Shown piece by piece: positions 3,751 to 20,348 of a stretch of 20,527 bases of DNA. The DNA is from a virus, in IMG/VR virus record IMGVR_UViG_3300031857_021790, positions 1-20,527 of that record, one strand, 5' to 3'. Position numbers and translations under genes: made by a program. Each line of letters begins with the position of its first letter. The stretch's first letter is position 1. Under the pieces are notes generated by a model. That model worked only from the letters and a program-made list of their open reading frames with translations, did no database searches and was not told the origin of the DNA.

Positions 3751-3760
3751 ATATTTATAT
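3751..3760 (+). promoter_or_regulatory. Promoter-like ATATTTATAT upstream of the glycan cassette
   Basis: The 31-base gap between the SLOG-like gene and the first glycosyltransferase holds ATATTTATATTAAAG. The same ATATTTATAT box occurs at 17444-17453 in the only other comparable gap, again just upstream of an AAGGA-type ribosome-binding site (here AAAGGAAA, about 10 bases downstream). It resembles AT-only phage late-promoter boxes. On the - strand it contains TATAAATA, the T4 late consensus, but genes run only on +. In so AT-rich a genome chance occurrence is possible. Confidence 0.35.
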
Positions 3761-5271: not shown

Positions 5272-6503
5272 GAAAAGTAGTTATATCATCACCAGTAGCA
5301 ACACAAAGTGGTTACGGGCATCATGCTCGCGAAATAATTAAACAATTTATAGATAAACGAGGCGACGAATGGGATATTAAACTACTTTCAATGCCCTGGG
5401 GACACACTCCTTTTACATTTCCTATCCCGTTAGATTGGCAAAAAAGAATAGTTCCGTTGCCATTAACTGAACAGCCTGATGTTTGGGTACAAATTACCGT
5501 ACCGAATGAATTCCAAGCTATTGGAAAATACAATATCGGCGTAACGGCGGGAACAGAAGGAGATATTTGTCCGGCAGACTGGATTGAAAAAATTAATGCA
5601 ATGCAAGTTACAATTGTTCCTAGTGAATTTACCAAAACGGTATTTGAAGAAACAGCAAAACTTCATAATTTAAATATTTTTACAAATATTCAAGTTATTC
5701 CGGAATATTTTGATGAGACTCAATATAATAACAAATCAGTAACTATAAAAGTTGCTGGTTTAGATGATATTAAAGAATCAGATGCATTTTTAAGTGTAGG
5801 TCATTGGTTGCAAGGGCAATTGGGCGAAGACAGAAAAAATGTAGGCGGCTTAATACATTGTTTTTTCAATACATTTAAAAACAAAAAAGATGCACCAGCA
5901 TTGATACTTAAAACTAGCGGTGCAACTTATTCAGTAACCGATCGTTTTGAAATACAAGATCGAATCAATCAAGTAGCATCATTATTTCCCGGAGACCGAT
6001 TACCGTCAGTATATTTATTACATGGAGATTTAACTACCGCAGAAATGAACGCAATGTATAATCATCCTAAAATAAAAGCTCTAGTTTCATTTACAAAAGC
6101 AGAAGGATTTGGAAGACCTTTATTAGAATTTTCTACAACTGGGAAACCTATAATAGCTCCGCATTATTCAGGACAAGCAGATTTCTTAAAGAAAGATTTT
6201 ATTTGTGCCTTACCTGGACAATTGACGTCAATACATCCAACGGCTCAAAATGAATTTTTAATTGGAACTGCAAAATGGTTTACTGTAGACTACGGATATG
6301 CATCTGCTATGATGAAAGATGTTTTAAAGAATTATAAAAAATGGATAGAATTAGCAAAACGACAACGATACTTTGTTAATTCGACATTTACAGAAACAGC
6401 TGTATCTGACACATATAATAAAGTTTTAGAAATTATAGATGCAGGCATTGACAAGTTACCAAAAGCTATCGAATTAAAGTTACCAAAATTACAAAAGATT
6501 TGA
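5268..6503 (+). CDS. GT-B fold glycosyltransferase, GT4-like
   Basis: A 411-residue transferase related in fold to its upstream neighbour. The N-terminus has SPVATQSGYGHHAREIIKQF, a typical GT4 glycine-rich acceptor loop with a following helix. The donor domain contains the EX7E motif, E279 and E287 in EGFGRPLLEFSTTGKPII, followed by a PHYSGQADF loop. The start overlaps the upstream gene by ATGA and has AGGA about 10 bases upstream, so the two are probably translated together and may add successive sugars. The C-terminus is unusual: LPK appears twice in about 15 residues and the protein ends LPKLQKI, copying the N-terminus of the upstream gene at DNA level. No membrane anchor is seen. Confidence 0.88.
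   Translation: MRKVVISSPVATQSGYGHHAREIIKQFIDKRGDEWDIKLLSMPWGHTPFTFPIPLDWQKRIVPLPLTEQPDVWVQITVPNEFQAIGKYNIGVTAGTEGDICPADWIEKINAMQVTIVPSEFTKTVFEETAKLHNLNIFTNIQVIPEYFDETQYNNKSVTIKVAGLDDIKESDAFLSVGHWLQGQLGEDRKNVGGLIHCFFNTFKNKKDAPALILKTSGATYSVTDRFEIQDRINQVASLFPGDRLPSVYLLHGDLTTAEMNAMYNHPKIKALVSFTKAEGFGRPLLEFSTTGKPIIAPHYSGQADFLKKDFICALPGQLTSIHPTAQNEFLIGTAKWFTVDYGYASAMMKDVLKNYKKWIELAKRQRYFVNSTFTETAVSDTYNKVLEIIDAGIDKLPKAIELKLPKLQKI
6478..6500 (+). repeat. 23-bp direct repeat, right copy
   Basis: The last codons of the second GT-B gene repeat the tract at 3785-3807 with one mismatch and the same encoded LPKLQKI, followed directly by TGA. A shorter partial copy (AAGTTACCAAAA) also precedes it at about 6453-6464, making a local tandem motif. 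Confidence 0.75.
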
Positions 6504-6518
6504 TTCTAATCTAAAAAA

Positions 6519-6536
6519 TCATATAATATAGTATGA
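6519..6536 (+). promoter_or_regulatory. Conserved TATAATA start element, copy 2
   Basis: TCATATAATATAGTATGA surrounds the ATG at 6533 and matches the element at 2166-2183 at 17 of 18 positions with identical placement relative to the start codon. The surrounding 29-base gap has no clear Shine-Dalgarno sequence. It may start a new transcript for the downstream part of the glycan cassette, or serve as a leaderless-type initiation signal. Confidence 0.4.
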
Positions 6537-7156
6537 CAATAACATATGCAATTACCGTTTGTAATGAATTCATAGAAATACAACGTCTTTTAAATTTTTT
6601 ATTAGATAATAAAAGAATTGAAGACAATATTGTAGTACTTTATGATTCAAAAAATGGCGATCCGGAAGTAGAAGCATTTTTACGAGCTAGATCTGTTAAC
6701 AAATCATTTTCTTGGTTCAAAGCAGAATTTCAAGGCCATTTTGCTGAATGGAAAAATTTATTAACATCATTTTGTACCGGCGACTATATTTTTCAAATTG
6801 ATGCCGATGAAATGATTAATGAATATGTTTGTAGATTACTACCACAAGTAATAGAAGCTAATCCGTCAGTAGATGTAATGATGATACCTAGAATTAATAC
6901 GGTAGAAGGTATGACTCAAGATCATATGCAACAATGGGGTTGGGCAGTAAATGAACATGGGTGGATTAATTTTCCAGATTATCAGTGGAGAATATATCGA
7001 AATAAATCTGCAGTAACATGGATCAATAAAGTACATGAACGATTAACTGGATACAGTACCATATCGCATTTACCAACTGATAAAGAATGGTGTTTGCTTC
7101 ATCCTAAAACAATCGAACGACAAATAAAACAAAATACATATTACGACACATTATGA
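6533..7156 (+). CDS. GT-A fold glycosyltransferase, GT2-like
   Basis: A 207-residue enzyme. The N-terminus ITYAITVCNEFIEIQRLL is the usual first strand and nucleotide-binding turn of GT2-type enzymes (the C-N-E motif is common). The metal-binding DxD is at D90-A-D92 in YIFQIDADEMIN. Near the C-terminus, QWRIYRN and WINKVHERL are typical of the GT2 subgroup in which a VHE segment forms part of the acceptor site. It should be an inverting, divalent-metal-dependent transferase using a nucleotide-sugar. At 207 residues it is a minimal catalytic domain with no membrane helices. It ends in an ATGA overlap with a methyltransferase gene, so the pair is probably coupled. Confidence 0.85.
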   Translation: MTITYAITVCNEFIEIQRLLNFLLDNKRIEDNIVVLYDSKNGDPEVEAFLRARSVNKSFSWFKAEFQGHFAEWKNLLTSFCTGDYIFQIDADEMINEYVCRLLPQVIEANPSVDVMMIPRINTVEGMTQDHMQQWGWAVNEHGWINFPDYQWRIYRNKSAVTWINKVHERLTGYSTISHLPTDKEWCLLHPKTIERQIKQNTYYDTL

Positions 7157-7716
7157 TATCATTTACAAATATATCTATAGAAGATTTACAAAATATTAGC
7201 TTAGATGAATTAAGTATTTCAATTCCAGAAATACAATTTAGAAATTATTTCTTAGGTCAGCCAAGTAATGAACATTATACATTATTAGCATATTTTAGTA
7301 TGATGTATGATTCATGCACGATATTAGATATTGGAACATATAAAGGATGTTCATCATTAGCATTATCATATAATTCGTCTAATTCTATTTTTTCATTTGA
7401 TCTAAACGGATCATCTAGAAACTTATCTTCATATCCAGAAAATGTAACATATGTTGTTGATAATGTAATTAATGGAAAATATGATGACTTAATTAAGTCA
7501 TCTCCATTTATTTTATTAGATACTGATCACGATGGCTCATTTGAACATGAATTTCATTCTTATCTGCAAAAGCTTAAATGGACCGGAATTTTAATGTTAG
7601 ATGATATTAAGTTAAATAATGAAATGAAATCTTATTGGAATTCAATAACAGAAGAAAAATATGATATATCAGACCTAGGTCATTGGTCTGGTACTGGAAT
7701 CGTTAAATTTGGATAA
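7153..7716 (+). CDS. Class I SAM-dependent methyltransferase-like protein
   Basis: A 187-residue protein with the motif-I SAM loop ILDIGTYKGCSSLAL preceded by about 55 helical residues, then an acidic strand end (IFSFDLNG), a LLDTDHDGS segment, and GILMLDDIKL as strand 5. This pattern fits the Methyltransf_24-like group, whose members often O-methylate sugars or small molecules using a metal-binding aspartate pair (here DTDHD and LDDI). The acceptor is probably a sugar hydroxyl of the glycan made by the neighbouring transferases, from context only. The start overlaps the upstream stop (ATGA) and lacks a clear ribosome-binding site, pointing to translational coupling. Confidence 0.75.
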   Translation: MISFTNISIEDLQNISLDELSISIPEIQFRNYFLGQPSNEHYTLLAYFSMMYDSCTILDIGTYKGCSSLALSYNSSNSIFSFDLNGSSRNLSSYPENVTYVVDNVINGKYDDLIKSSPFILLDTDHDGSFEHEFHSYLQKLKWTGILMLDDIKLNNEMKSYWNSITEEKYDISDLGHWSGTGIVKFG

Positions 7717-7721
7717 ATAAA

Positions 7722-8297
7722 ATGAGTAAATATAATAAAGAGTCGTACATAACGGCTAGGCATAATCCTTTAGAATGGAAGAATCATGTTAATGTTAAAA
7801 CATTGGAAGATTTTTCTAAATTTATACAAGGAGATGTTTTAGATATTGGGTGCAATCATGGTGCAACTACATATTGGTTAAAGGATTTTAATATTCAAAG
7901 TATAACGGGCGTAGACTTAAATTCCGCTGCATTAGATGTTGCCAAGGATACATTATCTAATATTGGGATATCTAGCAATTTAGTTGTACAAAACTACGTA
8001 GAATCTAATATTGGTAAAGAATTTGATACCATTATATCATTTCACACCCTAGAACATATATTTCCAGAAGATGCTAATAGCTTTGTCAAAAATATATACG
8101 CAGACTTAAAAACAGATGGGTATTTTATAATAGGAATTCCATACGATCGAGCATATCCAGATCCTTGTCACGTAGCATTCTATACCGAACTAACATTATC
8201 AGAATTATTAGAATCAGTTGGTTTTAAAACTATTAAATGTTTTAAAGATGATAGATTTTATGAAAGAAATATTTTAACGGGACTTTTTAGAAAATGA
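7722..8297 (+). CDS. Class I SAM-dependent methyltransferase (Methyltransf_11/23-like)
   Basis: A 191-residue methyltransferase. Motif I is VLDIGCNHGATTYWL, followed by an acidic end of strand 2 (ITGVDLNSAALDVA), motif IV-like IISFHTLEHIFPEDA with the hallmark H-x-L-E-H, and post-motif YFIIGIPYDRAYPDPCHVAFYT. This last segment resembles sugar and quinone O-methyltransferases of polysaccharide loci. It probably methylates a sugar of the cassette's product. It begins 5 bases after the previous methyltransferase and ends in an ATGA overlap with the next glycosyltransferase. It is distinct from its neighbour: the LEH group and the Methyltransf_24-like group are separate families. Confidence 0.86.
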   Translation: MSKYNKESYITARHNPLEWKNHVNVKTLEDFSKFIQGDVLDIGCNHGATTYWLKDFNIQSITGVDLNSAALDVAKDTLSNIGISSNLVVQNYVESNIGKEFDTIISFHTLEHIFPEDANSFVKNIYADLKTDGYFIIGIPYDRAYPDPCHVAFYTELTLSELLESVGFKTIKCFKDDRFYERNILTGLFRK

Positions 8298-9037
8298 TAT
8301 CAATAGTAATTAATTATTGCAGTAACGACGAACGTTTTATTAGAGTTTGTTTAGATAATGCACTTAAAGTCAGTACTGATATAATTGTGCCTATTAGTGA
8401 TCATTTCTTTGATGGTACGCCGGAATCAATTGAAAAAATTAAATCTTTAGCTAAAGAATATCCGTTAGTAAATTTTCAAGTATATGAATGGACGCCGGAT
8501 AAGTTTCCTAGATATTGGCACAATATGTCTAGAATAATTGGACAATCACTTTGTAATAAAGACTCAGATTACATTTTATTTCTAGATTCAGACGAAATAA
8601 TCGATCCAGAGCTTTTTAATCAATTTTTAGCAAATGAAAATTTTACAAAATATCATAGTTACAAGTTTTTATGCTACTGGTATTTTAGAGAACCAATATA
8701 TCAAGCAACTGTACATGAAGCGACACCAGTTTTAGTTAGAAAAGAATTTATCAATATTGATCCATTTAATACCGGAGTAGAACGAGAACAAATGTTTGAG
8801 TATCTTAGTACTGATAAAAAAATAAATTGCGTTGAATGGAATGGTGTTCCAATGTTTCATCATTTTTCTTGGGTTCGTACAAAAGAACAAATGCTTAAAA
8901 AAGTAAAAAGTTGGGGACACGCATCAGATAAAAATTGGTCAAACTTAGTAGAAGAAGAATTTAGTAGACCATTTAATGGAACTGATTTTGTTCATGGATA
9001 TCAATATAATATTGTAGAAAATAAATTTGGATTTTAA
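8294..9037 (+). CDS. GT-A fold glycosyltransferase-like protein
   Basis: A 247-residue protein. The first strand ISIVINYCSNDERFIRVCLD and the DxD motif D98-S-D100 in YILFLDSDEIID place it with GT2-like GT-A enzymes. A later segment with PMFHHFSWVRTKEQMLKKV is a C-terminal signature often seen in small transferases of polysaccharide clusters (a histidine pair near the metal site). No membrane helices are seen. The start overlaps the upstream methyltransferase stop by 4 bases and the ribosome-binding site is weak. The next gene begins 2 bases after its stop codon. The sugar donor is not predictable. Confidence 0.78.
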   Translation: MISIVINYCSNDERFIRVCLDNALKVSTDIIVPISDHFFDGTPESIEKIKSLAKEYPLVNFQVYEWTPDKFPRYWHNMSRIIGQSLCNKDSDYILFLDSDEIIDPELFNQFLANENFTKYHSYKFLCYWYFREPIYQATVHEATPVLVRKEFINIDPFNTGVEREQMFEYLSTDKKINCVEWNGVPMFHHFSWVRTKEQMLKKVKSWGHASDKNWSNLVEEEFSRPFNGTDFVHGYQYNIVENKFGF

Positions 9038-9039
9038 AT

Positions 9040-9675
9040 ATGGCAAATGGAGTATATAAAATAACACAAGAATTTGAAAAAGCATTATCTGACTATACAG
9101 GAGCTCCTTATGTAGTTACCGTTGATAATCAATCTAATGCATTATTCTTAGCATTAATGTATGAAAAGGTAACAGGACAAGAAATATCAATACCTGCACG
9201 TACATATCCGTCAGTGCCATGTGAAATAATTCATGCAGGCGCAAAGGTAAAATTCAAACCAGTAAAGGGAAAGACAATTAAAGGTGCATATCAGTTAGAA
9301 CCTACTAATGTGTGGGATTCTGCATTGCGATTTACCGCAGATATGTATATGCCAGGTACTCACATGTGCGTATCATTTACTGGCCCATATAAACATTTTA
9401 AATTATCAAAAGGCGGAGCAATTTTAACTGACAATCATGATGCATATCTTTGGTTTAAACGAGCTAGGTATAGCGGACGTAGAGAATGTTCGTATCATGA
9501 TGATCATTTCGATATGTTAGGATGGAATTTTTATATGATGCCAGAGTTAGCAGCCCGCGGAATGCTATTAATGAGTCAATTTTATCATGGCGAAACGCCT
9601 AAACAAAATGATGACTTAGAAATGCCATATCCAGATTTATCAAAATTTGAAATTTATACAAACGCAAATAGATAA
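9040..9675 (+). CDS. DegT/DnrJ/EryC1-type PLP sugar aminotransferase, short form
   Basis: A 211-residue protein matching the large-domain half of the DegT family (usual length about 370). Seen in order: an N-terminal helix, VVTVDNQSNALFLAL (cofactor-phosphate binding region), SIPARTYPSVPCEIIHAGAKVKF (family P-x-x-T-x-x-x-x-x-x-I-x-x-x-G-A), VWDSALRF with D93 for the pyridine nitrogen, and SFTGPYKHFKLSKGGAILTD with K118 as likely Schiff-base lysine, corresponding to the family's S-F-x-x-x-K region before GGA. The C-terminal small domain is absent. It could still transaminate a nucleotide-keto-sugar as a dimer, or be a reduced, non-catalytic relative. No frameshift relic follows, because the next gene starts at its stop. 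Confidence 0.75.
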   Translation: MANGVYKITQEFEKALSDYTGAPYVVTVDNQSNALFLALMYEKVTGQEISIPARTYPSVPCEIIHAGAKVKFKPVKGKTIKGAYQLEPTNVWDSALRFTADMYMPGTHMCVSFTGPYKHFKLSKGGAILTDNHDAYLWFKRARYSGRRECSYHDDHFDMLGWNFYMMPELAARGMLLMSQFYHGETPKQNDDLEMPYPDLSKFEIYTNANR

Positions 9676-10376
9676 TGAAACTAGCTATAATGCAACCTTA
9701 TTTTATGCCGTATATCGGATACTTTCAATTGATGAATTCGGTTGATGAATTCATTATCTATGATAATATTCAATATACTAAAAAAGGGTGGATTAATCGA
9801 AATAGAATTTTAGTAAATGGAACTCCGCAACTTATTACGTTACCATTAAAAAAAGATTCTGATTATCTAGATGTGATACGGCGATCTTTATCAGAATCAT
9901 GGGATAAAGAAAAAAATAAAATTTTAAATACATTAAAATCATTTTATAAAAAAGCACCGCAATTTGAACAAACGTTTTGTTTAATAGAACAATGTTTAAA
10001 CATGTCAAATACAAATTTATTTGACTTTATTTATCAAACTATATTATTGATAAATGATTTTTTAGACATTAAAACTAAAATAACGATATCTTCTACAATT
10101 GCAATAGATCATACATTAAAATCTCAAGATAAAGTTTTAAGTTTATGTCAAGCTAAAAATGCTAATACATATATAAATTCAATCGGCGGAACGGAATTGT
10201 ATGATAAAAATATTTTTAAACAACATGGTATTGAACTTAATTTTATAAAATCTAATTCTATAGAATATAAACAGTTCAATAATGAATTTGTGCCATGGTT
10301 ATCAATTATTGACGTGTTAATGTTCAATACTCCAGAACAGATTCGAGAATACTTAAATGAATATACTTTAATATGA
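9675..10376 (+). CDS. WbqC-like family protein
   Basis: A 233-residue protein with the clear WbqC family opening, KLAIMQPYFMPYIGYFQL, then VDEFIIYDNIQYTKKGWINRN (the strongly conserved Y-D-x-x-Q-Y-x-K-x-x-W-x-N-R segment) and a SIGGTELYD segment near the C-terminus. WbqC-like proteins occur in O-antigen and capsule loci next to DegT aminotransferases. They are thought to act in sugar modification, possibly acyl transfer to an amino sugar, but the reaction is not firmly established to my knowledge. Here it directly follows the DegT-like gene (one-base overlap), the classic arrangement, so the two probably act on the same sugar. It ends with an ATGA overlap. Confidence 0.88.
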   Translation: MKLAIMQPYFMPYIGYFQLMNSVDEFIIYDNIQYTKKGWINRNRILVNGTPQLITLPLKKDSDYLDVIRRSLSESWDKEKNKILNTLKSFYKKAPQFEQTFCLIEQCLNMSNTNLFDFIYQTILLINDFLDIKTKITISSTIAIDHTLKSQDKVLSLCQAKNANTYINSIGGTELYDKNIFKQHGIELNFIKSNSIEYKQFNNEFVPWLSIIDVLMFNTPEQIREYLNEYTLI

Positions 10377-11332
10377 AATGGAAAAAATTAGGTCAAATAT
10401 TTGACCCAACAACATGGAATGATGGAATTGATAGACCATGGATGCAAACTCATTCGCAATGCACGCATGCTCTAGTTTTAGACGATGTAGTTAGAATATA
10501 TTTTTCATGTAGACCTGAAAATGACGATAACGGGTTTGCAAAATCATATACAACATACTTAGACTTAGATAAGAATGATTTAACAAAAATAATTAAAGTT
10601 TCAGATAAACCAATTATACCATTAGGCGAACTAGGAACTTTTGATGAATTTGCAGTTTATCCGTCTTGCAATATTAAACACAACGATACAGTGTTATTTT
10701 ATTATGCAGGTTGGACTCGTTGTCAATCTGTACCATTTAATACATCAATTGGTATCGCTGTAAGTTATGATAACGGAGATACATTTAATCGAATTGGACC
10801 AGGGCCTATACTTTCAGCTGATTTATTAGAACCATTTGTATTGAGCGGACCTAAAGTTAGAAAATTCAATGATATGTGGTACATGTTTTATTTAGCTGGG
10901 ACTAAATGGATAATGCATAATGGAAAACAAGAAATAATATATAAAAATAGAATGGCAATATCTTCAGATGGAATAAAATGGTCTAGAATGAATATGAATA
11001 TAATTCCTGATAAGTTAAATGAAAATGAGTGCCAAGCTGGCCCTGATGTGTTTTATAAAGATGGCCTATATCATATGTACTTTGTGTATAGAGAAGGTTT
11101 AGATTTTAGAAACACCCCAAACCGCGGATACAAAATTGGTTATGCAACATCTATAGATTTAATCACTTGGTTACGAAAAGATGAAGATGCTGGAATTGAA
11201 TATTCAGAATTCGGATGGGATAGCACCATGCAGCATTACCCACATGTATTTCAAATTGATGAAAAATTTTATATGACATATAACGGAAACGATTTTGGCA
11301 AATACGGTTTCGGACTAGCAGAATTAGAATAA
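10373..11332 (+). CDS. Five-bladed beta-propeller glycosidase-like protein
   Basis: A 319-residue protein built of repeated blade-like units with aromatic and acidic turns: THALVLDDVVRIYFSCR, VYPSCNIKHNDTVLFYYAGW, SGPKVRKFNDMWYMFYLAG, AGPDVFYKDGLYHMYFVYRE and HYPHVFQIDEKFYMTYNGN. Each has the pattern P-x-V-x-x-x-(D/N)-x-x-Y-x-x-Y typical of GH43/32/68/130-type five-bladed propellers. Acidic residues in blade turns (DEFAVYPS, GPDV) could be catalytic, but I cannot identify a complete catalytic set. In O-antigen loci such proteins often accompany WbqC, as here. No signal peptide is seen, so it is cytoplasmic and more likely to trim or modify a precursor, or to act as a phosphorylase or transferase, than to digest external polysaccharide. 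Confidence 0.76.
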   Translation: MKWKKLGQIFDPTTWNDGIDRPWMQTHSQCTHALVLDDVVRIYFSCRPENDDNGFAKSYTTYLDLDKNDLTKIIKVSDKPIIPLGELGTFDEFAVYPSCNIKHNDTVLFYYAGWTRCQSVPFNTSIGIAVSYDNGDTFNRIGPGPILSADLLEPFVLSGPKVRKFNDMWYMFYLAGTKWIMHNGKQEIIYKNRMAISSDGIKWSRMNMNIIPDKLNENECQAGPDVFYKDGLYHMYFVYREGLDFRNTPNRGYKIGYATSIDLITWLRKDEDAGIEYSEFGWDSTMQHYPHVFQIDEKFYMTYNGNDFGKYGFGLAELE

Positions 11333-12486
11333 TGAAAATAACATTAAACACTCTTCAACAACATTTAAATAAATGTTCATCAACATTTGTTCCTGCATTA
11401 GATAGTTATGTTGATATAAAAGAATATTCAAAAAAAATATATGATAACGCTATAATATTTGACAAATTTGATAATAATATCCTTATAGGACTAGTTGCAG
11501 CATATAATAATAATGAAAAGAAGTTTGGATGGATTACTAATGTAAGCGTTGACCCGGATTATTCTAAAAGAGGTATTGCTAGTGAATTATTAAATAGATG
11601 TTATGACTATTTTAAACAATTAAATTATAATACTATTTTTTTAGAAGTATTTTCTGATAATATAAAAGCAATAAACTTATATAGAAAAAATGGATTTATA
11701 TTACACGAACTAAAAGGAAACAAAATGATAATGAAACAACAATTGATACGAAATTACGATGCTGAACTAAATGATACAGATGATCATAAATATGCTTATG
11801 GTTTTGATTTTGATGTAATGCATCCATATTATTTAACAGCATCATTGCCATATATCGATGTTAATGGATCTTGTTTAGAATTAGGTAGTTCTAAAGGACA
11901 TTTTACTAAACGATTGCTAGAACACTTTTCACATATTACATGTGTCGAAGCGTCGACTTTAGCTATTAAAGAAGCAAAAGAACGATTAAATGAACCAGAT
12001 TCTATAAATTTTGTACATGGATTATTTGAAGATGTTACATTAAATTCACATAAAACTATTTTTCTTACCCATGTATTAGAACATATAGAAAATCCAGTTG
12101 AACTATTGAAAAAAATTAATAATGAGTGGTTAGATGCAGATGGTACATTGATATTAATATGTCCGAATGCTAACGCACCTAGTCGTCAAATTGCAGTAAA
12201 AATGGGTTTGATATCACATAACACCGCTATAACCCCAGCAGAAGCAGCACATGGACATCATATTACATATACATTGGATACATTAGAACGAGATGCAACG
12301 TACGCAGGACTAAATGTAGTTTGTAGAACGGGTATATTTTTTAAAGCACTAGCTAATTTTCAATGGGATGAAATATTAAAAACAAACATCGTATCTAAAG
12401 AATACCTAGATGGGTGTTATGCTTTAGGACAACAATATCCGGATTTATGTTCTAGCATTATGATTGTTTGTAAAAAAGGTAACTAA
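11332..12486 (+). CDS. Fusion: GNAT N-acetyltransferase and SAM methyltransferase
   Basis: A 384-residue two-domain protein. Residues 1-138 form a GNAT acetyltransferase: GWITNVSVDPDYSKRGIASELL holds the acetyl-CoA pyrophosphate loop (R80-G81-I82-A83), and SDNIKAINLYRKNGF is motif B. Residues about 140-384 form a class I methyltransferase: SCLELGSSKGHFTKRLLEHF is motif I (182-189) and THVLEHIENPVELL has the H-x-L-E-H hallmark (247-251). The protein probably acetylates and methylates a sugar, perhaps the amino sugar made by the DegT-like enzyme. An in-frame ATG with a good Shine-Dalgarno sequence lies exactly at the domain junction (11725), so the methyltransferase may also be made alone. The start overlaps the propeller gene's TAA by one base. 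Confidence 0.88.
   Translation: MKITLNTLQQHLNKCSSTFVPALDSYVDIKEYSKKIYDNAIIFDKFDNNILIGLVAAYNNNEKKFGWITNVSVDPDYSKRGIASELLNRCYDYFKQLNYNTIFLEVFSDNIKAINLYRKNGFILHELKGNKMIMKQQLIRNYDAELNDTDDHKYAYGFDFDVMHPYYLTASLPYIDVNGSCLELGSSKGHFTKRLLEHFSHITCVEASTLAIKEAKERLNEPDSINFVHGLFEDVTLNSHKTIFLTHVLEHIENPVELLKKINNEWLDADGTLILICPNANAPSRQIAVKMGLISHNTAITPAEAAHGHHITYTLDTLERDATYAGLNVVCRTGIFFKALANFQWDEILKTNIVSKEYLDGCYALGQQYPDLCSSIMIVCKKGN
11713..11727 (+). promoter_or_regulatory. Internal ribosome-binding site and start at the fusion junction
   Basis: AAAGGA at 11713-11718 is followed, after 6 bases, by an in-frame ATG at 11725 (residue M132), with a second ATG at 11731 (M134). This is one of the better Shine-Dalgarno/start pairs in the cassette and falls where the GNAT domain ends. 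Initiation here would give a free methyltransferase of about 253 residues. Confidence 0.5.
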
Positions 12487-13178
12487 TGAAAATACATATA
12501 TATTATCGACACGCGTCAACGAATTCCGTTTTATCTTCTAGGCCCGAATGGTTTAGTTATGAATCATGTTTTCAAAATTTATTGAACACTATTAATGGAT
12601 ATGAAAATGTTCAATTAACATTAGCATTAGATGGTGATATAACATCTGACTTTACGCAAAATTATCAACAGCACTTTTCTCTATTCCAAACAAATTATAA
12701 ATCTAGTTTGCAATCATATCGTGCATTATTAGAATTTATCAAAGAACAATCAATTGAATCTTCTGATTTAATATACTTTTTAGAAAATGACTACATGCAT
12801 GTCCATGGATGGATAGATAAAGTTATTGAACTATTTAATACATACAATGGTTTAGATTATGTTTCTTTGTATGATCATAATGATAAGTATTTTTTACCTA
12901 TGTATGATACTTTAGTTTCTAAAATTTTCACAACAAATACACATCATTGGAGAACTACCCCATCAACTTGCGGTAGTTTCATCATTACGAAACAATTGTT
13001 TGACGATGATTACGATATTTGGTCTAATGCGGTTGGAGATCATGAAACGTTTTTATATCTTAATAGAGAAAGAGGACGTTTTGTATATTCACCGATACCT
13101 GGATTATCTACGCATTGTATGAATGATTTATTAAGTCCTACAATTAATTGGAAACAATATGTTAATAGCATCCCTTAA
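12486..13178 (+). CDS. GT-A-like glycosyltransferase, atypical metal motif
   Basis: A 230-residue protein that looks like a divergent GT-A transferase. The first strand is KIHIYYRHAS, followed later by VQLTLALDGD, a YRALLEFIKEQ helix, and SDLIYFLENDYMHVHGWID, where the position of the DxD is occupied by E-N-D. A C-terminal GSFIITKQLFDDDYDIWSN and GDHETFLYLN correspond to the acceptor-site part, with an acidic-aromatic cluster. No membrane helices. The family cannot be fixed; it resembles small transferases of LPS and capsule clusters. The start overlaps the previous stop (TAATGA-type, one base) and the 3' end overlaps the next gene by 20 bases. Confidence 0.65.
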   Translation: MKIHIYYRHASTNSVLSSRPEWFSYESCFQNLLNTINGYENVQLTLALDGDITSDFTQNYQQHFSLFQTNYKSSLQSYRALLEFIKEQSIESSDLIYFLENDYMHVHGWIDKVIELFNTYNGLDYVSLYDHNDKYFLPMYDTLVSKIFTTNTHHWRTTPSTCGSFIITKQLFDDDYDIWSNAVGDHETFLYLNRERGRFVYSPIPGLSTHCMNDLLSPTINWKQYVNSIP

Positions 13179-13884
13179 TTATAACCAACCAGACTTAACT
13201 GATAACTTAGTTAAACAACTAGCTAGAGGAAACGATTTATCAAAACATGAATTGATGATAATAGATAATGGTTCTTCGACAGCTATTGCAAAGTCAACAA
13301 CACATCGATTACATGAAAATTTGTATTTCGGTGGAGGATTGAATGTAGTAATGGAATATTTTCTTGCTAGCAATCATGATTATTTCGTTTTGTTTAATAA
13401 CGATTTAATTTTTCACGGGCCACGTCTGCTTGAAAATATGATACACGAAACGAAAGAAAATGATTTAGCTTTGTATTCTCCTGCAATTACAAATACAGGT
13501 GCCGATCAATGTTTTTGGAAACAAATGTGGAATTGGGGTACCGGTACCGTCAGACAGGTTCCGTTTATTGATTTTATGTGTCCAGTAATGCGCAGAGATT
13601 TGGCTGAATATATTATTAAATTTCCTGATGAATTATTTTTAGGTTGGGGTCCGGATTTTTATTCCGGGATTAAAGCTAAACAAGGAAATTTTAAAGTTGG
13701 AGTTAGTGATAACATTACATTATCGCATCTAGTAAGCCAAACATTTAAAACGGGGGCTATAGAAATAAAAGAATCAGATTTTTGTGCTCAGGCAGATGGG
13801 AATATGCATAATTTTTTCTTAAATTCTGAGTATAAAGATGAATTTATTGAATTTAGACAACAAGGATCAACATACAATGCTTAG
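13159..13884 (+). CDS. GT-A fold glycosyltransferase, GT2-like
   Basis: A 241-residue transferase with a clear GT2 opening, MLIASLNYNQPDLTDNLV, a nucleotide-binding DNGSS (36-40) and a glycine-rich YFGGGLN turn. The metal site reads N80-N-D82 in YFVLFNNDLIFHGP, a frequent variant in GT2 rhamnosyl- and related transferases. SPAITNTGA and a PVMRRDLAEYI segment follow, then FLGWGPDFYSGIKAKQG, matching the family's (E/G)-D-x-D-x-x-x-R region near the catalytic base. The start lies within the previous gene (20-base overlap) behind GGAAAC, a plausible ribosome-binding site. The 3' end overlaps the next gene by 8 bases if the start I prefer there is right. Confidence 0.82.
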   Translation: MLIASLNYNQPDLTDNLVKQLARGNDLSKHELMIIDNGSSTAIAKSTTHRLHENLYFGGGLNVVMEYFLASNHDYFVLFNNDLIFHGPRLLENMIHETKENDLALYSPAITNTGADQCFWKQMWNWGTGTVRQVPFIDFMCPVMRRDLAEYIIKFPDELFLGWGPDFYSGIKAKQGNFKVGVSDNITLSHLVSQTFKTGAIEIKESDFCAQADGNMHNFFLNSEYKDEFIEFRQQGSTYNA

Positions 13885-14716
13885 TTTTTGCATATCAACA
13901 TATAATAACTTAGAATATCTTAAAATAGCAGTTAAATCAGTACGAACTAATAGTTATTTTAAAGATGCGCCATTTATAATTCATGCAGAAAATTGTACGG
14001 ATGGAACAAATGAATGGCTTCGAGAAGCAAAAAAACTTCATAATATTGATTATGTAATCGATATCAATGATAATCCAAAAGGAATCGGCGGCGGAATGAA
14101 TTTTTGTGCTGATCTAGTAAAAACTCAGTATATTATGTTCCTACATTCTGATTTTTACGTAACTAAAGATTGGGACTTAGAATTACTAAAAATATTTGAT
14201 AAATATCCTAACGAAAAGCTATGGGTTAATTCTTGGAGAGTAGAACCAGCAATGTTCCCGGGTTCACAAACAACGCCTGGTAATATCGTAGTTGAAAAGG
14301 ATTTATTTGGAGAATACTATCATAATTTTGATTCTGAATTTTTTGATGCGTGGGCAAAAGATTTTTCTGAAATGAATAATGATATTGAGATACCTCGCGG
14401 TTTAGGAGTTAGTTGTTTAATACGAAAAACAGATTGGGATGATATAGGAGGAAATGACCCATTATTTGCTCCAACTAGTTGGGATGATCATGATTTATTT
14501 TTGAGAATGTACCAAGCAGGATTCAAATTCATAACAACGTCTAATAGTTTAATATATCACTTTGGAGCACGTGGCAGTCATAGATTAGAAGAAAACAATA
14601 ATCAATCATCTGAACGACAACGCGCGGCAGAACAGCGTAACGCTTTAAAATTTTATGAGAAATGGGGCGGTTTGCCAAAATTTGATGAATACGGACAAAT
14701 AATAGGATTACAATGA
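13877..14716 (+). CDS. GT-A fold glycosyltransferase, GT2-like
   Basis: A 279-residue GT2 enzyme. I start it at 13877 (MLSFCISTYNNLEYL), because this is the canonical GT2 first strand and AAGGA lies 10 bases upstream. A longer frame from 13838 would add 13 residues with no family match. Motifs: HAENCTDGT (nucleotide-binding turn), GIGGGMNF, H-S-D in YIMFLHSDFYV replacing DxD, and TSWDDHDLFLRMYQAGFKF, the usual ED-x-(D/E)-x-x-x-R region with W-D-D-H-D. C-terminal YHFGARGSH and EKWGG are typical of small GT2 proteins. It ends with an ATGA overlap with another glycosyltransferase, part of a run of four. Confidence 0.85.
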   Translation: MLSFCISTYNNLEYLKIAVKSVRTNSYFKDAPFIIHAENCTDGTNEWLREAKKLHNIDYVIDINDNPKGIGGGMNFCADLVKTQYIMFLHSDFYVTKDWDLELLKIFDKYPNEKLWVNSWRVEPAMFPGSQTTPGNIVVEKDLFGEYYHNFDSEFFDAWAKDFSEMNNDIEIPRGLGVSCLIRKTDWDDIGGNDPLFAPTSWDDHDLFLRMYQAGFKFITTSNSLIYHFGARGSHRLEENNNQSSERQRAAEQRNALKFYEKWGGLPKFDEYGQIIGLQ

Positions 14717-15753
14717 TATCTTTAATAATACCAACTACTAGTAAAAATAAAAATTATACGGATAATTTATTACGTAATATTAATGAACTATATCCGGATA
14801 TAGAAGTTATCGTTGAAGAAAATGATTCAGTTACATTAGGAGAAAATTATAATAATGCTGTAGCACGAGCATCAGGCGATAAGATTATCTTATTACATAA
14901 TGATATGGTACTATCTCCCGGGTTTGTTGAGACGATGGATAAACATATACAACCCGGCCGCATAACTACATATACTCGCATAGAACCACCAATATACAAT
15001 GATACATATCCAGGCAAAGTTATTTTAGATTGCGGACGTGATTTAGAATTATTTGATCAAACTACATTTAATTCATATCAACCTAATTTTGATTTAATAG
15101 ATGGCGGCTCGCAATTATTTTTCGGATGTATGCGCAATGAATATATTGGTATAGATGGCATTACATTTAAAATGTTTTGTGAAGATGATGATTTGCATAA
15201 ACGATATAGAATGGCAGGATTTGAGCATAAAGTTAGTTCAGCACATGTATATCACTTTGTAAGTAAAACTTCCAGAGCAGAAAATACATATCAAGACATC
15301 GAATTAGCATCTAATAGAAATTACATTAGAAAATGGGGTAGTAGAGGTAATGCACCTAAATACAACATAGCATTTGTAGTTCGAAATTGCACATTGCCCG
15401 TATTAGAAGCATTAGAACCATGGTGTGATAGAATCTATATTGAAGATGCTATGCAAGTAATTACATCTCATTACATTGAACAAGAACAACCAAAAACATG
15501 TTTTGATCTAAATCGTCGCGTATTGCATATTGAATATAACGCACCATCAGATGAAAATGATATTATTGTAGCATTTGATGCAACTCGTTTAACACAACAA
15601 AATTTTCAATACATTCAACAACTTGCAGCGATCATAGAAGAATCAGGTGATATCGGCGAATTTGAAATAGACATTTTTAAAATTAGTATATATTCAATGC
15701 AAACATATGAGAAAAATCTCGTAAAACGAAATGAACAACATATTTATTTATGA
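14713..15753 (+). CDS. GT2-like glycosyltransferase with extra C-terminal domain
   Basis: A 346-residue protein. Residues 1 to about 215 are a GT2 domain: SLIIPTTSKNKNYTDNLL, VIVEENDSVTLGENYN, H-N-D in KIILLHNDMVLSPGF as the metal site, and FCEDDDLHKRYRMAGFEH as the acceptor/base region, ending YIRKWG. The remaining 130 residues start with a new strand pattern (YNIAFVVRNCTLPVLEALEPWCD) and include TCFDLNRRVLHIEYNAPSDENDIIVAFDATRL. I do not recognise that domain; it is soluble and could bind an acceptor or another cassette protein. This gene closes the glycan cassette. Its stop overlaps the next ATG by ATGA at the boundary to the lysis genes. Confidence 0.78.
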   Translation: MISLIIPTTSKNKNYTDNLLRNINELYPDIEVIVEENDSVTLGENYNNAVARASGDKIILLHNDMVLSPGFVETMDKHIQPGRITTYTRIEPPIYNDTYPGKVILDCGRDLELFDQTTFNSYQPNFDLIDGGSQLFFGCMRNEYIGIDGITFKMFCEDDDLHKRYRMAGFEHKVSSAHVYHFVSKTSRAENTYQDIELASNRNYIRKWGSRGNAPKYNIAFVVRNCTLPVLEALEPWCDRIYIEDAMQVITSHYIEQEQPKTCFDLNRRVLHIEYNAPSDENDIIVAFDATRLTQQNFQYIQQLAAIIEESGDIGEFEIDIFKISIYSMQTYEKNLVKRNEQHIYL

Positions 15754-16075: not shown

Positions 16076-16507
16076 ATGATAAGAATGAAAACTATACCAT
16101 TATTAGCCTTAACATTCACAACCACAGTAACATTTATTTGTTCATATTTTTACAATCTAACAATGGATAACTTTGAACAATATACTTCATTGTTAGCAGT
16201 TGTGTTGTTAGATGGATTTTTCGGAATCATAGCAGGATGTAAAAGAGAAGGATTTAAAACATTCAAAGCAATCAAAGTATTACGAACTGCAATAGTTTGG
16301 ACATTGTTCTTAACGGTACTTCTTTTAGTAGAAAAAGGATTTGTAGGAACAGCCTGGTTGAGTGAAACAATTATCATACCATTTATCATATTTCAATTGA
16401 TAAGTGCGCTTAAAAATGCTTCAATGATAGGATGGATACCTTCATCGTTATTAAATGATATATTAGACAAGATAGATTTACATAAAGGTCATAGAGACGA
16501 AAAATAA
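16076..16507 (+). CDS. Holin, phage_holin_4/TcdE-like family
   Basis: A 143-residue membrane protein with about four hydrophobic segments: residues 7-28, 36-54, 71-88 and 96-113. The segment LLDGFFGIIAGCKREGFKTFKAIKVLR matches the family pattern of a D-x-x-x-G-x-x-x-A turn leading into a basic loop before the third helix. It is followed immediately by the endolysin gene, so it most likely makes the pore that releases or activates the amidase. AAGGA lies only 2 bases before ATG 16076 but 11 bases before an in-frame ATG at 16085, so the start may be either, differing by three residues. The hydrophilic C-terminus (DKIDLHKGHRDEK) is typical of holins. Confidence 0.75.
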   Translation: MIRMKTIPLLALTFTTTVTFICSYFYNLTMDNFEQYTSLLAVVLLDGFFGIIAGCKREGFKTFKAIKVLRTAIVWTLFLTVLLLVEKGFVGTAWLSETIIIPFIIFQLISALKNASMIGWIPSSLLNDILDKIDLHKGHRDEK

Positions 16508-16516
16508 AGGAAAGTT

Positions 16517-17392
16517 ATGGTATTAAGACGCGGTAGCAAAAGCGAATCAGTAAAAACATTACAAGAGTTTTTAAAATTAACAGTAGATGGGGATTTTGGT
16601 CCTAAAACAGAAGCAGCTGTTAAAGACTGGCAAAAATCACACGGTTTAATGGTTGATGGAGTTGTAGGTCCTAAAACATGGGCAGCAATGGGTATTTTAA
16701 ATACTGACAATGCAGAAAACATTGAAGTAGCAAATGCTTTGCAAATTAAAAAGTATTGGATGCCAGAAGGAACATATTTTAAAGGGCCTGTTCCAAAAGA
16801 TTGGATATTCTTACATCATACAGCAGGAGGAGATAATCCGTATCAAGTAGCTGATATGTGGGCTAGAGATAATCGCGGTAATGTTGCAACAGAATATATC
16901 CTAGGCGGACAAAACGTAGCAAATAAAAACTCTAAATTTGACGGTGAATTGATTCAATGTTTTCCTGATGGAGGATATGGATGGCATACTGGTACAGGTA
17001 ATTCTGTAATGCATAGAAACTCTGTAGCTGTTGAAGTATGTTGCATGGGGCAAATCGTTAATGGTAAGACTTATGTTAATACCCCGGCAGATCCTAGCCA
17101 AGTAATTAAACTAGCAAAACCGTTCAGAGGATTTCAATATTGGCATAATTATTCAGAGTCGCAAATCACAGCATTGAAGAATTGGATTTTGTTTGTAGCA
17201 AATAAATATAGCATTGATCCGCGGATAGGCTTAGTAGAATATGTACGAGCTAAAGGTGCTGATGGTTTTGATGTATTAGATGTACGTAAGGCAGAATCAA
17301 CTCCGGGTATGTATTCACATACCAATGTTATACGTGGTAAAGTTGACATGTATCCGCACCCAGATCTAATTGATATGTTATTATCGTTGTAA
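16517..17392 (+). CDS. Endolysin: PG-binding domain plus N-acetylmuramoyl-L-alanine amidase
   Basis: A 291-residue lysin. Residues 1-60 form a PG_binding_1 domain with the usual repeat L-x-x-x-x-x-D-G-x-(F/V)-G-P-K-T: LTVDGDFGPKTEAAVKDWQ and LMVDGVVGPKTWAAMG. Residues about 90-290 form an amidase_2 (T7 lysozyme/AmpD-like) domain. WIFLHHTAGG supplies the first zinc ligand (probably H100), GYGWHTG a nearby histidine, and SHTNVIRGKVDMYPHP the others (probably H268 and D277). It cleaves the amide bond between MurNAc and the stem peptide. There is no signal peptide, so it needs the holin upstream. A strong AAAGGAAA ribosome-binding site precedes the ATG. Having the binding domain at the N-terminus is the less common order for phage amidases. 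Confidence 0.92.
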   Translation: MVLRRGSKSESVKTLQEFLKLTVDGDFGPKTEAAVKDWQKSHGLMVDGVVGPKTWAAMGILNTDNAENIEVANALQIKKYWMPEGTYFKGPVPKDWIFLHHTAGGDNPYQVADMWARDNRGNVATEYILGGQNVANKNSKFDGELIQCFPDGGYGWHTGTGNSVMHRNSVAVEVCCMGQIVNGKTYVNTPADPSQVIKLAKPFRGFQYWHNYSESQITALKNWILFVANKYSIDPRIGLVEYVRAKGADGFDVLDVRKAESTPGMYSHTNVIRGKVDMYPHPDLIDMLLSL

Positions 17393-17443: not shown

Positions 17444-17453
17444 ATATTTATAT
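17444..17453 (+). promoter_or_regulatory. Promoter-like ATATTTATAT upstream of the 603-residue gene
   Basis: The 87-base gap 17393-17479 is the largest in the window. It contains this box, followed by AAAAAAG, AAGGAA (ribosome-binding site, 17465-17470) and the ATG at 17480. The same box sits at 3751-3760 in an equivalent place before the first glycosyltransferase. It probably begins a transcription unit separate from the lysis genes. Confidence 0.38.
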
Positions 17454-17479: not shown

Positions 17480-19291
17480 ATGTCTATTAAAAATAATTTA
17501 CGAGAAAATCGTCGTCTTTTGAAAAATCTGTTATCAGAGGCACTAGTAGCATCTAAAGCAGATAAAAATCCGGACTTTGATCCAAAAACACAATCTACAC
17601 CATGGACGGGAATTGGCGCAAAATATGAACAATTGATTAAAAAATTAGGCGGCAGACCATATGCTTTACCGGGCGGCACTCACGCGTATGAAATAAAATT
17701 AGGAAATGATATTATTAAAATGTATCAAGATGGTACTGCATATTCCGTGAATAACGCTAATGAAATGTTGTATATAGTCAATCCGGAGTTTAGTAAAAAT
17801 GGCATCACAATAACGAATATAAAAGATCGAAAGAAAATTGAAGGGGCTATTGAAAACAATAATGGAATTCCTACATGGAAAGCAGAAGCTCCAGAAAAGA
17901 TATCAAAACGTGATGAAGAGTCATGGATTGACTACGTTCAATATGCATTAACGGTTGTAGGATTTATCCCTGGATTCGGCGATATTGCAGATATCATTAA
18001 TGCTATGATATCATTTTATCGTTATGAAGAGTCGGGTCGAGAAGATACAATGTTTTTAATTGATGCATTTCTTAGTTTAATCGGAGCTATACCGGTAGTA
18101 GGAAGTATAGTAGCGGGATCATTAAAAGTACTATTTAAGAGTATAGGCGGTCTAAAAGATGCAGTTGTCACAGCGTGGAAAGGCAGAAAATCAGCTGATG
18201 AAGTTTGGTCAGCATTATATCATGAAGGACAATTAGATCCAAAAACATTGAATCTATTAGTTGAAGGCATGGGTTGGGTAGCAAGTGCAGTAAAATCATT
18301 TTCTAGAAAAGCCGAATGGATGTTGCCACCCGATGCATTAAAATCACTAGATGAGTTTGCAGAATATATGAAATCTAATAGAAATAGTGCAGAACAGATA
18401 TTTAAAAGCTCATCAAAACGTGCTGCAGATGCTGTACAAGGTGCTGGTAAAGGCCGCGGCAAAGGAATATTGAAACAGCGTGATTTAGAAAAGGGTTGGG
18501 GATTGTTAGGTTGGAAAAAAATAAAAAATTCTTTAAAAAATACATTTTCTAGAACTTTATCTACAAAAGAATTACAAAAACTAAAAGCTGCCATGGCATC
18601 GAAATTTGCCAAAAAAGCAGAAAATCCATCTGTCTTAACAGCATTATTAAAAACAGACCCATCTGGAATTGCTAGTGTTACTATAGGAGGTCGTAGATTT
18701 ACAAGATCTGGAGATATAGAATCAGCATTAGCTGCATTAAAAAGATCAAATCCAGACGAATATGCTAAAATTAAAACAAAGATAATAGATCGAGCCAAAT
18801 CTGTCGAAAATCCATTATATATAAACTTCATTACTAGTGAAGTTAATGCAATGAAAACTTTTATTTCACAACCAGGAACATTTATCGGATCTGCATTTTC
18901 TAGATGGCAAAATATGGTACCAGTAGCGTGGAATGAATTACAAGATTTAGGGGAAGATGCATTAATGTCAGTTGGACTTGAGACGAAAGATGACGTTAAT
19001 GGTTTATTTTGGCCGATGCTAAAATCATTAATATTAGGTGTAACTCCGGAAGAACAAGAAGAAAAGTTAGCAAAAAAATCTGCAGAGTTTGTATCTGCGG
19101 CGTCAAGTAAACTTCCTCCGACTTTACAAGCTCTAGGAAAAACAGCGTTGAACATAGTAGCTCCAGGTGCAGTTTCTACACCATATAATCCAAACGTTGA
19201 ATTTGAAATCGTTCCAGATGAAGATCCGAGATTGATAAAACAAACCGAGAAAGACATTAAAAAAGCTAAATCAAAATCTAGATGGACATAA
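17480..19291 (+). CDS. Large protein with capsid-targeting-like N-terminus and hydrophobic hairpin; possible ejected internal protein
   Basis: A 603-residue protein of unknown family. The N-terminus is a short basic amphipathic helix ending NLLSE-A at residues 16-21. L-x-E followed by A matches the T4 prohead protease (gp21) cleavage rule, and the layout resembles the capsid-targeting sequences of T4 internal proteins (for example FIAE-A). Residues about 150-220 form two hydrophobic, glycine-rich segments, YALTVVGFIPGFGDIADIIN and AFLSLIGAIPVVGSIVAG, a pattern like the hydrophobic pre-toxin or translocation regions of polymorphic toxins. The rest is basic and helical, with many S, A and K residues and no recognised catalytic motif. 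It may be packaged in the head and enter the cell with DNA. That is inference; it could also be another structural protein. Confidence 0.7.
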   Translation: MSIKNNLRENRRLLKNLLSEALVASKADKNPDFDPKTQSTPWTGIGAKYEQLIKKLGGRPYALPGGTHAYEIKLGNDIIKMYQDGTAYSVNNANEMLYIVNPEFSKNGITITNIKDRKKIEGAIENNNGIPTWKAEAPEKISKRDEESWIDYVQYALTVVGFIPGFGDIADIINAMISFYRYEESGREDTMFLIDAFLSLIGAIPVVGSIVAGSLKVLFKSIGGLKDAVVTAWKGRKSADEVWSALYHEGQLDPKTLNLLVEGMGWVASAVKSFSRKAEWMLPPDALKSLDEFAEYMKSNRNSAEQIFKSSSKRAADAVQGAGKGRGKGILKQRDLEKGWGLLGWKKIKNSLKNTFSRTLSTKELQKLKAAMASKFAKKAENPSVLTALLKTDPSGIASVTIGGRRFTRSGDIESALAALKRSNPDEYAKIKTKIIDRAKSVENPLYINFITSEVNAMKTFISQPGTFIGSAFSRWQNMVPVAWNELQDLGEDALMSVGLETKDDVNGLFWPMLKSLILGVTPEEQEEKLAKKSAEFVSAASSKLPPTLQALGKTALNIVAPGAVSTPYNPNVEFEIVPDEDPRLIKQTEKDIKKAKSKSRWT

Positions 19292-19295
19292 TATT

Positions 19296-20348
19296 ATGTT
19301 GCACGAATACGAAACACAAAGTACACTTAATCCAAAACTTTGGGACGACACGCGTCTCAAACCCAAGTTGGACAAAAAGTTTATTCGTATTGCAAAAGCA
19401 TTTTATGATTTCCTAGAAATTGACGCACCTATACTAGATATTATTCTTATTGGCAGTAATGCTAATTATAATTGGACGGAACACAGTGATATAGATTTAC
19501 ATGTTGTTATAGATTACCAATCAGTAAATAAAAATTTGCATCTTGTTAAAAATTACATGATGGCAAAGAAGTCACTTTGGAATGCAAATTATCCATTAAC
19601 ATATCAAGGAATGGCAATTGAATTGTATGCTCAAGATTGGAACGATAAATTGCATTCAACGGTAGGACAATATTCATTAGTAAAAGGCAAATGGATAAAA
19701 CAACCATCAGCAGAAACAGTTTCTATAGATGATGATATCATTGATGAAAAAGCTCGTCCTTTAGAATATCAAATTGATGCACTTGAACCAACAGATCCGA
19801 AGCTACGTGTTAAAATAGAAAACATTTTATTGCATTTACGTAAAATGCGACAAACGGGTTTAGAAGCCGAAGGAGAATATTCCGTAGAAAACTTAGCATA
19901 CAAAAAACTGCGTAATAGTGGGCATCTTGAACGTTTAAAGGAATTGTTACGTACTAGTACTATGACATCTTTAGCAGTCGAAAATGCAGCACACGCAAAC
20001 AAACCCGAATCATACGTTGAAATGTTAGCCAATCATGTTGCAAAGAAACACATAATGACAGAAACGGAATGGCAAATGGTAATGAAAAAGACTGATGCTG
20101 TAGAAGATGCAATGGGGCAATGGAAACATCCAGGACGTTGCACAATGATTCCTAGTAACAATATTACAATGCAACGAGTTGCGTATCCAGTGCTAGGAAT
20201 TGATGATACAGGTCATAGCATCATAATGCGTCCCGAACAACAATACGTATACCCAGGTAAACGAGTATTTGAAATACCAATGAACGGACAACAACAAACA
20301 TTGCTAATGCAAATGCGCAATGCTTTAACAGATTGGAATAACGTATGA
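19296..20348 (+). CDS. Nucleotidyltransferase-fold protein (Pol beta superfamily)
   Basis: A 350-residue protein. After LNPKLWDDTRLKPKLDKKF (an N-terminal signature I associate with phage members), residues 48-74 contain ILIGSNANYNWTEHSDIDLH: the G53-S54 pair followed by D65-x-D67, the nucleotide and metal-binding core of Pol beta-type nucleotidyltransferases. A possible third acidic residue lies in AIELYAQDWN. The fold transfers a nucleoside monophosphate to protein, RNA or a small molecule; the target is unknown. Residues about 270-350 form a separate region (PGRCTMIPSN to the end) that I do not recognise. It follows the 603-residue gene by 4 bases without a Shine-Dalgarno sequence, so it is likely on the same transcript. 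The stop overlaps the next start by ATGA. Confidence 0.75.
   Translation: MLHEYETQSTLNPKLWDDTRLKPKLDKKFIRIAKAFYDFLEIDAPILDIILIGSNANYNWTEHSDIDLHVVIDYQSVNKNLHLVKNYMMAKKSLWNANYPLTYQGMAIELYAQDWNDKLHSTVGQYSLVKGKWIKQPSAETVSIDDDIIDEKARPLEYQIDALEPTDPKLRVKIENILLHLRKMRQTGLEAEGEYSVENLAYKKLRNSGHLERLKELLRTSTMTSLAVENAAHANKPESYVEMLANHVAKKHIMTETEWQMVMKKTDAVEDAMGQWKHPGRCTMIPSNNITMQRVAYPVLGIDDTGHSIIMRPEQQYVYPGKRVFEIPMNGQQQTLLMQMRNALTDWNNV

What the first reader, a model, noticed from the sequence alone, without database searches (positions are those of the whole stretch)
17480..19291. 603-residue candidate injected effector: capsid-targeting-like start plus toxin-like hydrophobic hairpin
The N-terminus ends in L-S-E followed by A, as expected of T4-type prohead-protease substrates packaged in the capsid. 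A later glycine-rich double hydrophobic segment resembles membrane-insertion parts of polymorphic toxins. The protein could be stored in the head and insert into, or cross, the host membrane during DNA entry.
Basis: inference. Interest (0 to 1): 0.65.

Follow-up and report, generated by a model that had tools for sequence, protein, structure and literature searches.

The report
Phage head-packaged protein with membrane-entry hairpin
This gene of an uncultured T4-like phage most likely makes a protein that is packed inside the virus head and shot into the bacterium, where a hairpin of the kind used by bacterial toxins inserts into the inner membrane; it belongs to a large, previously undescribed and fast-changing family.

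Summary
Both observations hold. The ORF (17480-19291, 603 aa) starts with a 20-residue helix ending L-S-E|A, and residues 150-222 form a glycine-rich double hydrophobic segment. Relatives strengthen both. All 15 representative relatives keep an [LI]-x-E before the first domain (shuffled mean 7.0; 0 of 5000 reach 15). The nearest long relatives encode a gp21-type protease, gp23 capsid and LxE-bearing core proteins. The gene carries an exact ATATTTATAT motif that precedes sheath, tube, hub, neck and portal genes; 24 of 26 family genes have its core. The hairpin is the most conserved part, and its profile finds bacterial proteins with toxin-type architecture: five VgrG-Rhs proteins, one T7SS-signal protein and a Mucilaginibacter protein. 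The slot is hypervariable: flanks are 92-97% identical while the gene is 25-52% identical, or absent. Three relatives insert an M15-like peptidoglycan-peptidase domain after the leader. No toxin domain or immunity gene was found. Best reading: a capsid-packaged, injected ejection protein whose hairpin inserts into the host inner membrane to help DNA or co-packaged proteins enter, rather than a toxin. No virion data exist, and the window's own contig is too short to show its protease.

The parts
17444..17453 (+). late-promoter-like motif ATATTTATAT, 26 nt before the start codon
   Evidence: Exact match. The core ATATTTAT lies upstream of 24 of 26 family genes (expected 0.015 each) and of 26-30 genes in each of three relatives (18 in the shorter G003; about 1-2 expected), including sheath, tube, hub, portal and neck.
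17480..17539 (+). N-terminal leader, residues 1-20: capsid-targeting-like amphipathic helix
   Evidence: Sequence; predicted helix 3-20 at low confidence; [LI]xE conserved in relatives.
17531..17542 (+). putative prohead-protease site L-S-E|A (residues 18-21)
   Evidence: Matches the gp21 motif L/I-x-E (PMC9026906); position E20 at least 90% conserved in alignment A1.
17603..17884 (+). small beta domain, residues 42-135 (motif FYxDGxxYxxN)
   Evidence: AlphaFold2 mean pLDDT mostly 93-96 over this stretch; conserved in the family; no convincing solved fold.
17927..18145 (+). hydrophobic hairpin, residues 150-222, DxxQxxLDxxGxIPxxGDxxDxxNAxxYxxR...IPxxGS
   Evidence: Alignment A4; bacterial matches.
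18146..18889 (+). helical region, residues 223-470
   Evidence: AlphaFold2: residues 361-450 pLDDT about 73-87, the rest low; aligns across the family.
18890..19024 (+). conserved C-terminal motif, residues 471-515 (NELQDLGEDAL...ETKDDVNGLFWP)
   Evidence: 71% mean identity in the clade and 36% across the family.
19025..19291 (+). variable C-terminal tail, residues 516-603, and stop
   Evidence: 15% family identity.
19296..20348 (+). downstream nucleotidyltransferase-like gene that marks the slot
   Evidence: phrog_36119 E=1e-46; weak Polbeta/NTP_transf_2 matches; follows the family gene directly in most relatives.
16517..17392 (+). upstream endolysin (peptidoglycan-binding domain plus amidase)
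   Evidence: 94-96% identical in L002, L003, L004, L005 and L008.
16076..16507 (+). holin-like gene
   Evidence: phrog_199 E=1e-5, Phage_holin_4_1.

Best explanation
The gene encodes a late-expressed internal head protein of a T4-like phage. Its first 20 residues act as a capsid-targeting leader that brings it into the prohead core and is removed by the gp21-type protease after L-S-E. The mature protein is stored with the DNA, passes down the contractile tail at infection, and its conserved hydrophobic hairpin inserts into the host inner membrane, helping DNA or co-packaged proteins to cross. Late-type promoter motif, conserved leader and toxin-type hairpin are shown by sequence comparison; packaging, cleavage, injection and membrane insertion are inferred.
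For: Leader: [LI]xE in 15/15 representative relatives against 7.0 by shuffling and in 52 of 54 distinct hairpin proteins, by my count of the listing; gp21-type protease in G001, G002 and G004 and gp23 in these and G003; LxE-bearing gp22-, gp23- and core-like proteins; many other leader-tagged genes. Expression: the motif of sheath, tube, hub, portal and neck genes precedes the gene. Hairpin: most conserved region; profile hits to five VgrG-Rhs proteins, one T7SS-signal protein and a Mucilaginibacter protein, E 1e-12 to 1e-17 for a nominal million sequences. Envelope role: M15-like domain after the leader in L247, L295 and L302, with conserved SxHxxGEALDF and TGxHFHxxY, matching phage 'contractile injection system protein' and 'endolysin' genes at E 9e-6 and 8e-4. 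Variable slot with 92-97% identical flanks.
Against: No virion proteomics; the window contig (20.5 kb) shows neither capsid nor protease gene. LxE is a short motif. The leader profile of the 106-member ENMxRFGTKNL family does not detect this leader (E=30). P0001 itself has no peptidoglycan-hydrolase domain. The hairpin holds conserved D, N and R residues, and its model is of low confidence. Roughly half of the related phages with this neighbourhood lack the gene, so it is not essential for DNA entry.
Confidence: 0.55

Rival explanations
1. An injected effector proper: packaged and injected in the same way, but its job is to disturb the host (membrane permeabilisation, anti-defence or exclusion of rival phages), with the hairpin serving to carry the helical C-terminal part across the membrane, as in CDI and T6SS toxins.
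For: Hairpin shared with VgrG-Rhs and T7SS-signal proteins; hypervariable slot; a minor class puts the hairpin straight after the leader with other C-terminal parts (L031:9275-10708, L268, L282, L299).
Against: No toxin domain in Pfam or PHROGs; no immunity gene; motif 471-515 conserved across the family, unlike swapped toxin tips.
Confidence: 0.22
2. A non-virion late membrane protein for lysis, lysis timing or superinfection exclusion, placed beside holin and endolysin.
For: Adjacent to holin and endolysin; late-type motif; hydrophobic hairpin.
Against: Does not explain the conserved LxE leader or the M15-like domains behind the same leader in relatives. The gene is often missing while holin and endolysin stay.
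Confidence: 0.13
3. A structural head-core or tail protein that is not injected.
For: Late motif; LxE sites; long helical body.
Against: Presence or absence and size (about 600-1065 aa) vary between phages with nearly identical flanks; no match to core, tape-measure or tail families above noise; hairpin shared with toxins.
Confidence: 0.1

Closest known systems
Phage T4 internal proteins (IPI-III, Alt) with capsid-targeting sequence and gp21 protease
   Same: Short N-terminal leader ending in L/I-x-E; gp21-type protease in relatives; late expression; variable cargo.
   Different: No sequence similarity detected to any described family; 603 aa with a membrane-type hairpin; packaging not shown.
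Polymorphic toxins (VgrG-Rhs and T7SS-signal proteins) with an internal hydrophobic hairpin
   Same: Same hairpin motif, 44-53% identity over 43-63 residues.
   Different: No toxin tip and no immunity gene; packaging leader instead of a secretion domain.
Phage P1 DarA/DarB/Hdf head-packaged antirestriction proteins
   Same: Large protein directed into the head by an N-terminal signal (PMC9024508).
   Different: No sequence link seen; DarB blocks restriction enzymes, no such domain here.
T7 gp14-16 and P22 gp7/16/20 ejection proteins
   Same: Proposed role: ejected proteins that bridge the envelope; some relatives add a peptidoglycan-hydrolase-like domain, as T7 gp16 does (own knowledge).
   Different: Not detected as homologous; contractile-tailed phage; P0001 lacks the hydrolase domain.
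MuF phage-capsid toxins
   Same: Toxin-type modules predicted to be packaged in phage heads (PMC3482391).
   Different: No MuF domain.

Membership tests
T4-type capsid-targeted internal head proteins (functional class) | N-terminal propeptide ending in L/I-x-E | tested here: met
   Residues 18-20 LSE; conserved in 15/15 representatives.
T4-type capsid-targeted internal head proteins (functional class) | gp21-type prohead protease in the phage | tested here: inconclusive
   Met in relatives G001, G002 and G004; the window contig is a 20.5-kb fragment without head genes.
T4-type capsid-targeted internal head proteins (functional class) | Expressed with structural genes | tested here: met
   Shared upstream motif; transcription itself not measured.
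T4-type capsid-targeted internal head proteins (functional class) | Present and cleaved in virions, injected | not testable with these tools
   Needs proteomics and infection assays.
'ENMxRFGTKNL' leader family of the same phages | Leader detected by that family's profile | tested here: not met
   E=30, rank 224; the likeness NLxENx(6-7)LxE is suggestive only.
Polymorphic toxins | Hydrophobic hairpin of the pre-toxin type | tested here: met
Polymorphic toxins | C-terminal toxin domain | tested here: not met
   None in Pfam or PHROGs.
Polymorphic toxins | Adjacent immunity gene | tested here: not met
   The downstream NTase gene stays when the slot is empty.
Pfam DUF4112 | Score above the curated cut-off | tested here: not met
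   19.2 bits against 23.3.
T7/P22-type ejection proteins | Homology or a peptidoglycan-hydrolase domain in the protein | tested here: inconclusive
   M15-like domain in three relatives only, none in P0001; fold searches without a clear match.

The most novel reading that the evidence does not exclude
A large group of uncultured T4-like phages carries, in one hypervariable late slot, capsid-packaged proteins that use the same membrane hairpin as bacterial contractile-injection toxins to get DNA or co-packaged proteins across the inner membrane, sometimes with their own cell-wall peptidase: a shared entry module of phages and toxins.
Probability: 0.35. Interest if true: 0.8.

Novelty: new variant of a known kind. 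Interest (0 to 1): 0.6.

Why it matters
How the DNA of contractile-tailed phages, and proteins injected with it, cross the inner membrane is still poorly understood. A head-packaged protein family with the hairpin found in VgrG-Rhs-type proteins would give a concrete, testable candidate and link phage entry to toxin translocation. The conserved leaders could also serve as tags to list the injected proteome of these phages from sequence alone.

Tried and rejected
Direct search for relatives with P0001 alone failed in viral contigs and in cultured phages (noise only); relatives were reached through the downstream NTase gene. Full-length profile in bacterial genomes: no relative. The idea that the leader is homologous to the ENMxRFGTKNL leaders was tested and not supported. 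Sequence matches to solved structures were coiled-coil or helical noise for the full profile and none for the hairpin. Fold searches: no solved-structure match for the full model, only uncharacterised phage proteins in the viral library (one at 39% identity), and weak beta-domain matches with Z below 5, not interpreted. The full model has mean pLDDT 57.6, so its overall fold is not used. A lysozyme-like reading of the N-terminal parts of L232 and L248 rests on a remembered motif; libraries and phage records gave no support, so it is left out of the argument.

Full report
WHAT IS THERE. The window is a 20,527-base virus record with T4-type replication genes (clamp-loader subunits at 139 and 1502), a long run of sugar- and methyl-transferase-like genes (my reading of the ORFs), and a lysis block: holin-like gene (16076), endolysin (16517), the 603-aa gene in question (17480-19291), then a nucleotidyltransferase-like gene (NTase, 19296; phrog_36119, E=1e-46). 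The protein has no accepted family: only DUF4112 below its cut-off (19.2 against 23.3 bits), no PHROG, and no relative among 50,697 phage records.

FINDING RELATIVES. Searching with the NTase gave 63 loci. Directly upstream of it, about half carry a long gene and about half do not. The long genes (about 600-1065 aa) belong to one family by profile. A scan with the hairpin alone gave 83 viral relatives, 54 distinct proteins, most of them directly before the NTase gene. The slot changes fast: in L002, L003, L004 and L008 the holin and endolysin are 92-97% identical to the window, and the NTase is 91-96% identical by the tblastn listing, while the slot gene is 25% identical, absent, absent and 52% identical.

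THE LEADER. T4 head proteins are cleaved by gp21 after L/I-x-E, and internal proteins carry 10-19-residue leaders that target them to the core (PMC9026906). Here the leader is 20 residues, ending LSE|A. In 15 representative relatives an [LI]xE is always present before the first domain, against 7.0 expected from shuffled leaders, 0 of 5000 shuffles reaching 15 (relatedness not corrected). The three longest relatives encode a gp21-type protease (E 3e-33 to 5e-35) and gp23, with scaffold and core proteins that carry LxE sites. LxE[AGS] is 2-3 times enriched at residues 5-25 genome-wide. The same phages have another leader family, MK..LAENMxRFGTKNLxE, on at least 106 distinct proteins, but a profile of it does not detect the P0001 leader: same kind of signal perhaps, not shown to be homologous.

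EXPRESSION. An ATATTTATAT motif lies at 17444-17453, its 10 bases ending 26 nt before the start codon. By itself it is not rare in the window when one mismatch is allowed, but its core ATATTTAT precedes 18-30 genes in each of four relative genomes where 1-2 are expected, on the sense strand only, among them tail sheath, tail tube, baseplate hub, portal, neck and GroEL genes, and 24 of 26 slot genes (expected 0.015 each). The gene is therefore probably expressed late, with the structural genes.

THE HAIRPIN. It is the most conserved region (54% mean identity across the family). In bacterial genomes its profile finds seven proteins: five from Lachnospiraceae-type genomes with a VgrG-like part (Phage_GPD found in the two tested) and Rhs-type domains, one with a T7SS signal domain (Saccharopolyspora), and a Mucilaginibacter protein without a Pfam match. 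Profile E-values are 1e-12 to 1e-17 for a nominal million sequences. In a T6SS effector, a glycine-zipper segment permeabilises the inner membrane of the target cell to let the toxin in (PMC10240207); that is an analogy, not a homology claim.

FUNCTION. P0001 has no recognisable catalytic domain, and residues 471-515 are conserved across the family, unlike a swapped toxin tip. Three relatives (L247, L295, L302) carry, between leader and hairpin, a domain with the M15 peptidase pattern SxHxxGEALDF...TGxHFHxxY. Curated models match only weakly (VanY 0.09, Peptidase_M15_3 0.05 and 0.15), but tblastn links it to a phage 'contractile injection system protein' (9e-6) and to endolysin genes (8e-4). 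A head-targeting leader, an optional cell-wall peptidase and a membrane hairpin together fit an ejection protein that opens a way through the envelope. Injected ejection proteins forming a trans-periplasmic conduit are known from P22 (abstract of PMC8402733, listed).

STRUCTURE. The beta domain (residues 42-135) is predicted well (mean pLDDT mostly 93-96) but matches no solved fold convincingly. The hairpin and C-terminal third are predicted poorly, as may be expected of a segment that folds only in a membrane (inference).

LIMITS. No experiment supports packaging, cleavage or injection. The window contig lacks head genes. Shuffle controls do not correct for relatedness. The gene is dispensable at the level of the phage group, so its role is accessory or host-specific.

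Noticed in passing
L103-L222 (e.g. G001:C1:119023-126541): At least 106 distinct proteins share one N-terminal leader, MK..LAENMxRFG(T/V)KNLxE, in front of very different bodies, often as tandem paralogs: probably a large set of capsid-targeted internal proteins.
   Followed up: partly
G001-G004 and window 3751-3760, 17444-17453: ATATTTATA(T) is a strongly sense-oriented motif upstream of structural genes, containing the reverse complement of T4's late TATAAATA as I remember it; another exact copy precedes the glycosyltransferase at 3781.
   Followed up: partly
window 3781-15753: A 12-kb run of glycosyltransferase-, methyltransferase- and acetyltransferase-like ORFs inside a T4-like phage contig: possibly a glycan or surface-modification cluster (my reading).
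   Followed up: no
window 19296-20348 and relatives: The NTase itself starts M-[LI]-x-E-[YF] in many relatives (MLHEYET, MIREYET, MITEYQT), so it may also carry a very short protease site.
   Followed up: no
L023:8035-9998: The slot gene is split into 419- and 190-aa ORFs in this contig: a broken copy or a sequencing error.
   Followed up: no
L031:9275-10708, L268, L282, L299: A second architecture: leader, then the hairpin at once, then other C-terminal parts of unknown function.
   Followed up: partly
L005:7683-8030 and equivalents: A 115-aa conserved membrane protein often precedes the slot, whether full or empty, but is absent in the window.
   Followed up: no
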